DNA of 64,000 nt, taken from Sipunculus nudus (lineage: Eukaryota; Annelida; Sipuncula; Golfingiida; Sipunculidae). The position numbers were made by a program, and so were the translations under genes. The stretch is from contig CM049311.1 of the NCBI GenBank assembly GCA_026874595.1, positions 44,891,676 through 44,955,675 on the forward strand, read 5' to 3'. The notes beneath the pieces are model-generated. The model was not told where the DNA came from, ran no database searches, and saw only the letters and a program-made list of their open reading frames with translations. The first letter of the stretch is position 1. Each line of letters opens with the position of its first letter. Shown here in pieces: positions 14,383 to 48,292 of this stretch.

Positions 14383-15474
14383 GCTAGTAAAACTCACTGA
14401 CAAAATCTGACAAAACTGACAAAATCACGCAGTTATAATTGAAATACCAAACATCTGATTTGTTGAGATCGTGGGTTAGAAATTTCAGTTGAAGGTTCCA
14501 TTAAATAGGCCCGCGTCATTTGCTTCATACTCACGGTGCCACTTTGACTGGTGCTGAAAAATACAACCACCACAAGCCACAAGATGTCAGTGATCATTTT
14601 CCTGCCAAAATAATCATGAATGATGTTACATTGGTGAATTTTGACTACAAACTTCTTACTGGCTTATGTAACCACGGGTGCTGTGAGGACACATCATGCC
14701 ATTAGTTCATCTCCACTCATTTGCATAGCCCTGATATGGCTTTAGGAAAATGCAAAATTCTCGGGGCTTTGGGGAAAAAGAAACAATCTCAGGTCACGGC
14801 TGTCAGACATTCGTGGCGCAGGTCACATTCATAACTAAGATCTAGTGGAACATATTTAATATTTATCTCTTTCTGTACAGCATTTAACCCTGCAGAATAA
14901 AAAAGCTGTTTATGCAGAACTATGTTCTGCTGGTAAAACTCACTGACAAAATCTGACAAAACTGACAAAATCACGCAGTTATAATTGAAATACCAAACAT
15001 CTGATTTGTTGAGATCTTGGGTTAGAAATTTCAGTTGAAGGTTCCATTAAATAGGCCCGCGTCATTTGCTTCATACTCACGGTGCCACTTTGACTGGTGC
15101 TGAAAAATACAACCACCACAAGCCACAAGATGTCAGTGATCATTTTCCTGCCAAAATAATCATGAATGATGTTACATTGGTGAATTTTGACTACAAACTT
15201 CTTACTGGCTTATGTAACCACGGGTGCTGTGAGGACACATCATGCCATTAGTTCATCTCCACTCATTTGCATAGCCCTGATATGGCTTTAGGAAAATGCA
15301 AAATTCTCGGGGCTTTGGGGAAAAAGAAACAATCTCAGGTCACGGCTGTCAGACATTCGTGGCGCAGGTCACATTCATAACTAAGATCTAGTGGAACATA
15401 TTTAATATTTATCTCTTTCTGTACAGCATTTAACCCTGCAGAATAAAAAAGCTGTTTATGCAGAACTATGTTCT
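14383..15474 (+). repeat. 546-bp head-to-tail tandem duplication
   Basis: Two adjacent copies (about 14,383-14,928 and 14,929-15,474) differ at only two positions that I can see: TAGTAAAA versus TGGTAAAA near the start, and GAGATCGTGGG versus GAGATCTTGGG. Each holds an identical 61-codon open frame beginning MLHTHGATLTG. It has no recognised domain, no convincing start context and no neighbours, so I do not call it a gene. Near-identity means either a recent duplication or an assembly artefact. Confidence 0.9.
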
Positions 15475-16540: not shown

Positions 16541-17535
16541 CTAGAATATTGGTAGTCAACAAGCGACTACATGTATCTGCCGAAATAAGAGCGGGACGGG
16601 TGAAGTGAGGCAGGATTTAGTGGCAAGGGGAAATAGAGTGTGGTGTGTTGCATATAAGCATGGATGTCTGCAGCATATGTGTATGTAGGTGGCTCCACCT
16701 GCCACAAAATCCAGAAAGCTATCCAAGTTGTATAAACATGCAAAATTTTAGGCAGATAAGTCCAACCACTGCTTGTATATGAGTGATTTTATCCCACAGC
16801 AGACAAACAGAAGGAAGCTGTGCAAAGAATGGTTGCAGGTGGCCCCACCAATTTTGTGTATGATAAAGAGCTATGTGTGATCTATACACATGCAAAATTT
16901 CAGGGGTATATGTCAAACCTATCCTGAGATATTAGCATGGATGTCTGCAGCGTAAACATAAGTGTAGGTGGAGCCATCTAGCACAAAATAGAGAAAGCTA
17001 TCCAAGATGTATAAACATGCAAAATTTTAGGCAGATAAGTCAAACCACTGCTGAGATATGAGTGATTTATCCCACTGCAGACAAACAGACTGACGCTGTG
17101 CAAAAATGGTTGCAGGTGGTGCCACTAGTTTTGCGTATGATAAAGGGCTATGTGAGATCTGTACATATGCAAAATTTCAGGAGAACATGCAAACCAATCC
17201 TGAGATATAAGCCTGGATGTTTGCAGCGTAAACATAAATGTAGGTGGCGCAACCAGCCACAAAATCAAGAAAGCTATCCTAGATGTATATAAATGCAACA
17301 TTTTAGGCAGATAAGTCAAACCACTGCCGAGATATGCGTGATTAACGGCAGACAAACAGACGAACACTGTGCAAAATGGTTGCAGGTGACGCCATCAGTT
17401 TTGCGTATAATAAATCGCTATGTGAGACAAACAGACAGAAGCTGTGCAAAAATGGTTGCAGGTGGCACAATTAGTTTTGCGTATGATAAAGAGCTATGTG
17501 AGATCTGTACACATGCAAAATTTCAGGAGGATATG

Positions 17536-17950
17536 TGTAACGGGTGAAAATAGTAACCAGGCCCGAATGTGGGTTCGAACCCGTAACCTGTGACACACAA
17601 GTCAGACGTTCTACCGCTTCGCCAATAAAGCAAGCTTCACTACCAAGGCCAGTAGGAACGCTTTTGGGTGTCCGGTTACATTCACCCCATCTCCGAGGAC
17701 GTTCTGTCCCCAGAACGTGGGATCTATCCCGGGGGTCACACAAGTGAACTGGGTGGGGCATCATGCCACGACACCGACTCCCCGTATCCCACTTCTGACA
17801 CCATTTGTAACGGGTGGAAATAGTAACCAGGCCCGAATGTGGGTTCGAACCCGTAACCTCTGACACACAAGTCAGACGTTCTACCGCTTCGCCAATAAAG
17901 CAAGCTTCACTACCAAGGCCAGTAGGAACACTTTTGTGTGTCCGGTTACA
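17536..17950 (-). mobile_element. TRIM (miniature LTR retrotransposon) with tRNA-like LTRs
   Basis: Two 145-bp direct repeats (17,536-17,680 and 17,806-17,950) have TGTAAC...GTTACA ends and differ at four positions. They flank a 125-bp interior. On the minus strand the interior begins two bases after the first LTR with TGGTGTCAGAAGTGGGAT, an 18-nt complement of the 3' end of animal tRNA-Leu plus CCA (a primer-binding site). It ends with the purine-rich GGAGATGGGGTGAA before the second LTR. TATG is duplicated on both sides (17,532-17,535; 17,951-17,954). Each LTR contains Pol III-type boxes: A box TGGCGAAGCGG and B box GGTTCGAACCC, 32 nt apart. No protein is encoded. Confidence 0.85.
17580..17635 (-). 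repeat. tRNA-like segment in LTR (downstream copy)
   Basis: On the minus strand TGGCGAAGCGGTAGAAC and GGGTTCGAACCC read as tRNA A and B boxes. The T stem keeps only two or three pairs and the anticodon arm is imperfect, so this is not a functional tRNA gene. A matching segment lies at 17,850-17,905 in the other LTR. Confidence 0.7.
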
Positions 17951-18407
17951 TATGTGAACCCAGTCCTGGGATAAGCCTGGATGTCTGCAGCCAGAACGTG
18001 AATGTAGGTGGTGCCACCTGTCATAACATCTAGAAGGCTATCCAGGATGAATAAACATGCAAAATTTCAGATGGATAATTCAAACCACTGTAGAGATATG
18101 AGTGATTATGAGGCAGATGAACAGATGGACGCTGTGCAAAAATGGTTGCAGGTGGGGCCACAATTTTTTTGTGTGTTATAAAGCTATCCAAGGGCAACAT
18201 TTGTGCAAAGTTTTAGCCTTTTTGGTCAAACAAGTCAGAAGATATGTTTGTTAATGTGTCAAAACAGAAGCACAGATGGACGCACTGGAGATAGGAAAGG
18301 TCAGAGGTCAACGCAAAATATTTTGGCATCAGTTCACATGTGACCTGATAATCGTGTAAAGTTTCTGAAATATCTGTCATGTGGTCTCAGATACATCAGA
18401 TACATCT

Positions 18408-27440: not shown

Positions 27441-27572
27441 GGATCCCTGTTAGCTCAGTGGTAGAGCAGATAACCAGCAATCGGAGGCCCTCCGTCCAAA
27501 AGATGGGGAGACGGGTCTCTGGCTAACACACTGTCTGAGGGTCATGGGTTCGATTCCCATAAGGGGTGATCC
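27441..27572 (+). repeat. tRNA-like sequence (SINE head or split pseudo-tRNA)
   Basis: TAGCTCAGTGGTAGAGC (27,451-27,467) is an excellent A box with a 4-bp D stem. ATGGGTTCGATTCCCAT (27,544-27,560) is a perfect T arm and B box. An acceptor-like pairing (TCCCTGT with AAGGGGT, about 5 of 7) closes the structure. The boxes are 85 nt apart instead of about 30-40, and no clean anticodon arm forms. It could be a tRNA with a ~59-nt intron, a pseudo-tRNA or a tRNA-derived SINE. Confidence 0.5.
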
Positions 27573-48224: not shown

Positions 48225-48292
48225 TGAATCGGGAATCGAACCTACGATCTCTAGACCAGGAGACCTACAAGCTACTATGTGAGCCGTGAAGA
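48225..48292 (-). repeat. tRNA-like sequence (probable SINE head)
   Basis: On the minus strand CGGCTCACATAG (A-box-like) is followed 32 nt later by GGTTCGATTCCC, a perfect B box. A 5-6 bp anticodon-like stem (GTCTC/GAGAT) lies between. The T stem and acceptor stem do not pair well, so it is unlikely to be a working tRNA gene. Normal A-B spacing suggests a tRNA-derived SINE extending towards 48,060. Confidence 0.45.

What the first reader, a model, noticed from the sequence alone, without database searches (positions are those of the whole stretch)
17532..17954. Miniature LTR retrotransposon whose LTRs carry a tRNA-like Pol III promoter
Seen directly: 145-bp direct repeats with TGTAAC...GTTACA ends (four differences), a 125-bp interior, a tRNA-Leu-complementary primer site TGGTGTCAGAAGTGGGAT two bases inside one LTR (minus strand), a purine-rich tract at the other, and a TATG target duplication in an otherwise continuous tandem array. 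Each LTR also contains TGGCGAAGCGG and GGTTCGAACCC with tRNA-like 32-nt spacing. Known: TRIMs lack proteins and depend on other elements, and plant Cassandra TRIMs carry 5S rRNA promoters in the LTR. Inference: this is a parallel animal design in which a tRNA-type promoter was captured or evolved in an LTR, a possible LTR/SINE hybrid. Low LTR divergence suggests recent movement.
Basis: partly seen in the sequence, partly recalled or inferred. Interest (0 to 1): 0.78.

Follow-up and report, generated by a model that had tools for sequence, protein, structure and literature searches.

The report
Mini-retrotransposon with tRNA-like promoter
A tiny, protein-less jumping DNA element carries a tRNA-like control region in both of its end repeats; this kind of element was named in 2024, but the genome around this one holds unusual clues to which larger element moves it and how it is copied.

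Summary
Window 17536-17950 (minus strand) is a 415-bp element: two 145-bp LTRs (four differences), a 125-bp interior, a tRNA-Leu primer site, a purine tract and a 4-bp duplication (TATG), in a satellite array whose empty site can be recognised. It belongs to a dispersed, recently active family. A TRIM with tRNA-type A and B boxes in its LTRs is what Kojima (2024, PMC10886601) named Helenus, in animals including bivalves: a new member of a known kind. Pol III transcription is unproven. New here: (1) Helenus and a 12-kb Gypsy ('Gypsy-A') share the TATA/(TA)n target, cut in the same phase; two Gypsy families that share Helenus's primer site do not share the target. (2) One composite locus joins Helenus cDNA, a 58-nt copy of tRNA-Leu (primer site included) and Gypsy-A sequence. 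The copy reads G at the wobble base, where the other 58 of 59 matches to the searched tRNA-Leu stretch read A or T. This fits a mature, inosine-edited primer copied into DNA. Helper and primer may thus be uncoupled; this rests on sequence alone.

The parts
17532..17535 (.). target site duplication, left copy (TATG; CATA read in the sense of the element)
17536..17680 (-). 3' LTR (145 bp)
17547..17550 (-). TTTT, the only T4 on the sense strand of this copy: a possible Pol III terminator (inferred)
17571..17581 (-). B box GGTTCGAACCC in the 3' LTR
17614..17624 (-). A box TGGCGAAGCGG in the 3' LTR
17681..17694 (-). purine-rich tract (PPT) next to the 3' LTR
   Evidence: aligned in 28 interiors
17681..17805 (-). 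interior, 125 bp, too short to code for retrotransposon proteins
17786..17803 (-). primer binding site complementary to the 3' end of a tRNA-Leu (isoacceptor CAA/CAG assigned from recall)
17806..17950 (-). 5' LTR (145 bp); reads TTTC where the 3' LTR has TTTT
17841..17851 (-). B box in the 5' LTR
17884..17894 (-). A box in the 5' LTR
17951..17954 (.). target site duplication, right copy (TATG)

Best explanation
This is a Helenus-type TRIM, a non-autonomous LTR retrotransposon whose LTRs carry a degenerate tRNA-derived A/B-box region. Shown: paired LTRs, PBS, PPT, 4-bp duplication, empty site, many copies, some with identical LTRs. Inferred: the boxes drive (or help to drive) Pol III transcription of an RNA that is packaged in a Gypsy element's particle, primed by a tRNA-Leu, reverse transcribed like any LTR element and integrated by that Gypsy's integrase into TATA, often (TA)n, sites. 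The most likely helper of those tested is Gypsy-A, the family that shares target and phase and is fused with Helenus cDNA at one locus, although its primer site differs. My estimate for Gypsy-A or a near relative as the helper is 0.55; the confidence below is for the Helenus-type TRIM as such.
For: Structure. Family. Of 25 loci (L001-L024 and the window) 15 have a matching duplication of at least 4 bp; five more (L010, L011, L012, L014, L020) carry two A before the LTR. Of the 10 other loci with an LTR (L028, L031-L037, L039, L044), 3 match; the flank pieces L025-L027 are not counted. Nine of 29 two-LTR loci have LTR pairs without a mismatch over 138-145 aligned bases. Target: Helenus 5' flanks end in YATR in 31 of 52, RTAY 0; Gypsy-A 18 of 35, RTAY 0; Gypsy-B 0 of 33, RTAY 26 (flanks; counted; Helenus against B p = 1.4e-9). 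Gypsy-C 1 of 8. Gypsy-A 3' flanks begin with TATA in 7 of 8 copies. Composite C3:93849282-93870486. tRNA genes. Gypsy protein domains.
Against: No expression data. ARAGORN calls no tRNA in 68 LTR rows at default (58 at a relaxed 80% setting), Rfam finds nothing at E up to 1, and the predicted fold is no cloverleaf. Box columns are not better conserved than the rest of the LTR: 44 of 145 slid positions do as well in the 7 older copies, 102 of 145 in the younger. A T4 behind the B box is in 56 of 67 LTRs, 5' LTRs included, where it should stop Pol III early; three loci (L007, L012, L033) with identical LTR pairs lack it in both LTRs. Gypsy-A's own primer site is not the tRNA-Leu site, and Gypsy-A sits in TATATA runs more often than Helenus does (29 of 35 against 29 of 52, p = 0.01). 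The composite is one locus and needs several events.
Confidence: 0.9

Rival explanations
1. The helper is a Gypsy that shares the tRNA-Leu primer site (Gypsy-B, L040/L041; Gypsy-C, L042; or the L043 family), as Kojima's primer-site argument would predict, and the common TATA target with Gypsy-A is coincidence.
For: All three have LTRs ending in GTTACA and the same 18-nt site TGGTGGCAGCGGTGGGAT as the main Helenus type. The L030 Gypsy has the window's type; its target was not examined. So both primer-site types of Helenus occur in Gypsies of this genome.
Against: Gypsy-B cuts in the other phase (RTAY 26 of 33, YATR 0 of 33; its pure AT runs end in T in 6 of 6, those of Helenus in A in 16 of 16). 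Gypsy-C shows YATR in 1 of 8 flanks (5 of the 12 regions fetched did not reach a recognisable LTR start). L043 duplicates CAAA in the one copy read. No LTR or interior match of Helenus to L040-L043 was reported.
Confidence: 0.3
2. The tRNA-like region is a fossil: the element is transcribed by Pol II from the LTR or from flanking promoters, and the boxes no longer matter.
For: Boxes are not more conserved than other LTR columns, the T4 is missing from both LTRs of three copies with identical LTR pairs, and there is no tRNA call at default or cloverleaf fold.
Against: Both boxes are recognisable in 57 of 67 LTRs, and the only T4 of the family's majority LTR lies 20 nt behind the B box.
Confidence: 0.35
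3. The composite locus C3:93849282-93870486 arose by later DNA rearrangement of separately inserted elements in a TA microsatellite and says nothing about co-packaging.
For: Its left end and its right end both lie in TA repeats. It holds an inverted and a permuted Gypsy-A, so several events are needed.
Against: A 58-nt tRNA-Leu copy behind the Helenus LTR, starting with the complement of CCA and with G at the wobble base, is best explained by a primer tRNA copied during reverse transcription. It is joined to antisense Gypsy-A pol in the order expected if synthesis jumped from tRNA to Gypsy RNA.
Confidence: 0.3
4. A SINE inserted into one LTR and was spread by gene conversion, so there is no TRIM lineage with this promoter.
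For: A SINE insertion into an LTR of an ancestor is Kojima's proposed origin of Helenus.
Against: The region is present in both LTRs of dispersed, structurally complete copies, diverged ones included.
Confidence: 0.03

Closest known systems
Helenus (TRIMp3; Kojima 2024, PMC10886601)
   Same: TRIM with tRNA-derived A/B boxes in both LTRs, PBS, PPT, 4-bp duplications in animals, solo LTRs, size within 311-1263 bp, degenerate tRNA
   Different: tRNA-Leu primer sites of two types within one family (the paper names Lys, His, Ile, Pro, Glu, Ser for bivalves; Leu among others for wasps and vertebrates). Helper evidence here comes from target phase and a composite locus, not from primer-site similarity. 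Whether this very family is in Repbase could not be checked.
Cassandra (plants) and Ajax (nemerteans)
   Same: TRIMs with a small-RNA-gene promoter in the LTR
   Different: 5S rRNA derived; no Rfam match here
biv-TRIM (bivalves; PMC6934838: abstract, first part of Results, Discussion)
   Same: animal TRIM with solo and tandem forms
   Different: 202-218-bp repeats, 77-80-bp interior, no clear PBS; here 145 bp, 125 bp and an 18-nt PBS
Drosophila gypsy clade (target preference; PMC3276498, passages)
   Same: 4-bp TATA target core, as in Helenus and Gypsy-A here
   Different: autonomous elements; the 412 and Idefix clades have ATAT cores, like Gypsy-B here
Retroviral plus-strand over-extension on the tRNA primer (PMC13191261, passages)
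   Same: synthesis running past A58, with products that end at position 37 or at the tRNA's 5' end
   Different: there described for HIV-1, where those two products cannot serve as active templates; here seen as genomic copies

Membership tests
Helenus | short element, two LTRs, no protein | tested here: met
   415 bp, LTRs 145 bp, interior 125 bp
Helenus | tRNA-derived A and B boxes in the LTRs | tested here: met
   both LTRs; 57 of 67 family LTRs carry both
Helenus | PBS matching the 3' end of a tRNA next to the 5' LTR | tested here: met
   the main family type continues into host tRNA-Leu sequence at C3:93869202; the isoacceptor of the window type is from recall
Helenus | polypurine tract before the 3' LTR | tested here: met
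Helenus | 4-bp target duplication (animal Helenus) | tested here: met
   window and 14 of 24 further loci of the first set; 10 of 24 without
Helenus | functional Pol III promoter | not testable with these tools
   no expression data; the paper too says it awaits experimental validation
Helenus | sequence match to a listed Helenus family | not testable with these tools
   Repbase and the paper's supplement were not held
Cassandra/Ajax | 5S rRNA-derived sequence in the LTR | tested here: not met
   no Rfam match at E up to 1 in 17300-18200
biv-TRIM | 202-218-bp repeats, 77-80-bp interior | tested here: not met
   145 bp and 125 bp
SINE | no LTRs | tested here: not met
   paired LTRs with 4-bp duplication

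The most novel reading that the evidence does not exclude
Helper and primer are uncoupled in a tRNA-promoter TRIM. It is packaged and integrated by a Gypsy whose own primer site is different (Gypsy-A), while it takes its tRNA-Leu primer independently and even changes isoacceptor. One genomic locus preserves a reverse-transcription accident in which the particle's enzyme copied the mature, inosine-edited primer tRNA-Leu(IAG) as far as the 5' side of its anticodon stem and then jumped onto Gypsy-A RNA.
Probability: 0.4. Interest if true: 0.65.

Novelty: new member of a known kind. Interest (0 to 1): 0.45.

Why it matters
For animal Helenus, Kojima points to Gypsy helpers from similar primer sites and from the length of the target duplication. 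If target phase and the composite locus are right, the primer site can mislead: a TRIM may borrow one element's particle and integrase while using another tRNA. A genomic copy of an inosine-edited primer would also be a natural record of which tRNA, in which state of modification, primed reverse transcription.

Tried and rejected
Rejected: a late SINE insertion confined to one copy; a functional tRNA gene; 5S or another Rfam family; biv-TRIM. Tried without result: naming the host. Of 11 COX1 matches, 10 lie on small contigs; the two of these that I read (C60, C123) are bacterial, and the eleventh is a short fragment on C5. A literature search on 17 chromosomal pseudomolecules in Mollusca named only Tridacna gigas, whose assembly size differs; one on Pinnidae found nothing. 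Seventeen contigs are of chromosome size, by my own sum of contig lengths shown in the fetch calls. L027 (beside L008) held only the end of L008's own LTR. Box conservation was tested and gave nothing. A search with the diverged LTR of L044 returned mostly the same young copies.

The same note gives Gypsy-A as about 10.1 kb with a 1.76-kb LTR; searches give about 12 kb and 2.7 kb. The Fisher value printed used 17 pure runs where the count is 16; I do not use it.

Papers: PMC10886601: abstract, Results, Discussion, figures/tables. PMC6934838: abstract, first part of Results, Discussion. PMC3276498 and PMC13191261: passages only. All others: search listings only. That no helper of an animal Helenus has been shown experimentally rests on Kojima's text and on the listings.

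Full report
The element. On the minus strand of the window, 17536-17950 reads as LTR (145 bp), AA, an 18-nt primer site, interior, purine tract, LTR (145 bp), between copies of TATG. The two LTRs differ at four places. Both carry TGGCGAAGCGG and GGTTCGAACCC 32 nt apart, a combination found nowhere else in the window and not expected by chance. The surrounding DNA is a satellite array, and the flanks joined by script align through the insertion point to other units.

The family. The LTR gave 698 first-look candidates and the interior 276, 40 scored each. The exact LTR start occurs 132 times with a non-C base 12 positions upstream. Of 25 loci read (L001-L024 plus window), 15 have matching duplications of at least 4 bp. 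Of the other 10, five carry two A before the LTR (L010, L011, L012, L014, L020), one retains purine-tract letters (L008), and four are incomplete or rearranged (L002, L004, L018, L021). Some of the matches lie in TA runs, where a duplication cannot be told from the run (L003, L005, L024 match over 6 bp). Of 10 further loci with an LTR, 3 match. Two loci are solo LTRs (L014, L020); tandem forms occur (L019, L021, L039). Nine of 29 two-LTR loci have LTR pairs without a mismatch, so the family moved recently; 8 of 67 LTRs are under 90% identical to the window's 5' LTR (66-89%).

What kind it is. Kojima (2024) described TRIMs with tRNA-derived LTR sequences as Helenus, in fungi, one plant and six animal phyla, with 4-bp duplications in animals. 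Each structural feature that I could test is met. The window element is therefore a Helenus.

Promoter. The boxes and their spacing are shown; transcription is not. ARAGORN finds no tRNA at default settings in 68 LTR rows and 58 at a relaxed setting. The fold is not a cloverleaf. Box columns are no better conserved than others. In the family's majority LTR the only TTTT lies 20 nt behind the B box; 56 of 67 LTRs have a T4 there. In the window copy it is present only in the 3' LTR, so a Pol III transcript from the 5' LTR could run the whole length (inference). In most loci with two or more LTRs scored it is in both, which would demand read-through, and three loci with identical LTR pairs have it in neither. 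This leaves the Pol III step plausible but weakly supported.

Primer. In 28 aligned interiors the window alone has TGGTGTCAGAAGTGGGAT; the others have TGGTGGCAGCGGTGGGAT or near variants, and L001 has a longer stretch. Behind GTTACA the window's type occurs 21 times in the genome, 8 of these with the AA spacer of Helenus (seven of the eight, besides the window, were fetched as L033-L039, of which L033, L034, L035 and L039 are clear Helenus copies, L036 and L037 diverged ones, and L038 has only a short interior match). The main type occurs 118 times behind GTTACA over all families, 100 listed. At C3:93869202 the main type continues without a break into a copy of tRNA-Leu, 58 nt in all, that reaches the 5' side of the anticodon stem. 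Of 59 places in the genome that match the searched 35-nt tRNA-Leu stretch (up to one mismatch), 58 have A or T at the wobble base; this one has G. Host matches thus offer AAG and TAG, not GAG. Inosine at position 34 of tRNA-Leu(AAG), reported at over 90% in another system (PMC13191261 passage), would be copied as G. L001 holds a second over-extended primer site, 47 nt with one difference, whose match to tRNA-Leu ends just before position 37. The same review lists a product that stops at position 37 and one that runs to the tRNA's end among over-extension products in HIV-1, and says that neither can serve as an active template there; so both copies here need another way into the genome, such as a template jump. 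Position numbers, the m1G37 expectation for tRNA-Leu and the isoacceptor names of the primer sites are my reading and recall.

Helper. Kojima infers Gypsy helpers for animal Helenus from primer-site similarity and duplication length. I compared 5' flanks of families. Helenus: 52 genomic flanks (100 of 132 hits were listed; 47 purine-tract flanks and one internal one were dropped): YATR 31, RTAY 0, pure (TA)6 16. Gypsy-A: 35 genomic flanks of 52 hits (17 dropped): YATR 18, RTAY 0, pure (TA)6 12. Gypsy-B: 33 of 64 hits (31 dropped): YATR 0, RTAY 26, pure (AT)6 6. In the window as background YATR stands at 2.6% and TATATA at 0.13% of positions. Helenus and Gypsy-A do not differ in YATR (p = 0.51), Helenus and Gypsy-B do (p = 1.4e-9), and Gypsy-C (1 of 8) differs at p = 0.02. 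Against full identity, Gypsy-A sits in TATATA runs more often than Helenus (29 of 35 against 29 of 52, p = 0.01). Six Helenus flanks end in TGTG, as does the one of L042 itself. Helenus and Gypsy-A also share a habit: two letters like the end of their purine tracts stand between the TA run and the LTR (AA in 3 Helenus flanks; GA in 7 and AA in 1 Gypsy-A flanks). TATA against ATAT cores separate Gypsy clades in Drosophila (PMC3276498 passages), so I take phase as an integrase trait. Gypsy-A's own primer site (TGGCGCAGCCTGCAGG...) looks like tRNA-Ser by recall; it was not compared with host genes.

The composite. At C3:93849282-93870486 lie, in order: a TA run; an inverted Gypsy-A whose 5' LTR lacks its first 140 or so bases; a Gypsy-A opened in its leader, with gag, a cut-short pol, part of an LTR, primer site and leader up to GGCC; two letters; the last letters of a Helenus interior; three Helenus LTRs with two interiors; primer site plus tRNA-Leu copy; 1.25 kb of Gypsy-A pol in antisense at 99.6% identity; and a TA run. 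The tRNA-to-pol join runs in the direction expected if synthesis on the primer tRNA switched to Gypsy-A RNA. It indicates that Helenus cDNA and Gypsy-A nucleic acid met during reverse transcription. It is one locus, and several events are needed. At C15:3304330-3304570 a Gypsy-A LTR and a Helenus solo LTR share one TA run.

Autonomy. The Gypsy-A copy in L025 has Gag (RRM, PNMA and CCHC matches) and RT, RNase H and integrase matches, with pol cut short; the frames read of Gypsy-B and C have protease, RT, RNase H and integrase matches. No claim of activity is made.

Verdict. The feature is real and correctly described, and belongs to a kind named in 2024. The added evidence on target phase, the copied primer and the composite makes the open question of which element moves Helenus testable, and gives moderate interest.

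Noticed in passing
G000:C5:52594041-52636346: Tandem array of about 50 matches to tRNA-Leu in which AAG and TAG types mostly alternate with a period near 1.6 kb.
   Followed up: no
G000 contigs C60, C61, C62, C66, C72, C74, C75, C89 and C123: The assembly seems to hold bacterial contigs: COX1 frames of 577-578 aa with nearly equal scores on eight of them (the one on C60 is 52-58% identical to the 80 best bacterial matches), and another bacterium's genes on C123. Only C60 and C123 were read.
   Followed up: partly
L025 3352-4710: Gag of Gypsy-A matches RRM, PNMA and CCHC models.
   Followed up: no
L030 and L042: Two Gypsies with similar LTR ends carry the two different tRNA-Leu primer sites that Helenus also shows.
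   Followed up: partly
L014 (C15:3303800-3305200): A Gypsy-A LTR and a Helenus solo LTR lie in one TA microsatellite.
   Followed up: partly
window 14397-15336: The same two short tandem repeats recur 546 bp apart, which suggests a local duplication.
   Followed up: no
window 27547-27557 and 48232-48242: Two further B-box-like sites GGTTCGATTCC outside the element.
   Followed up: no
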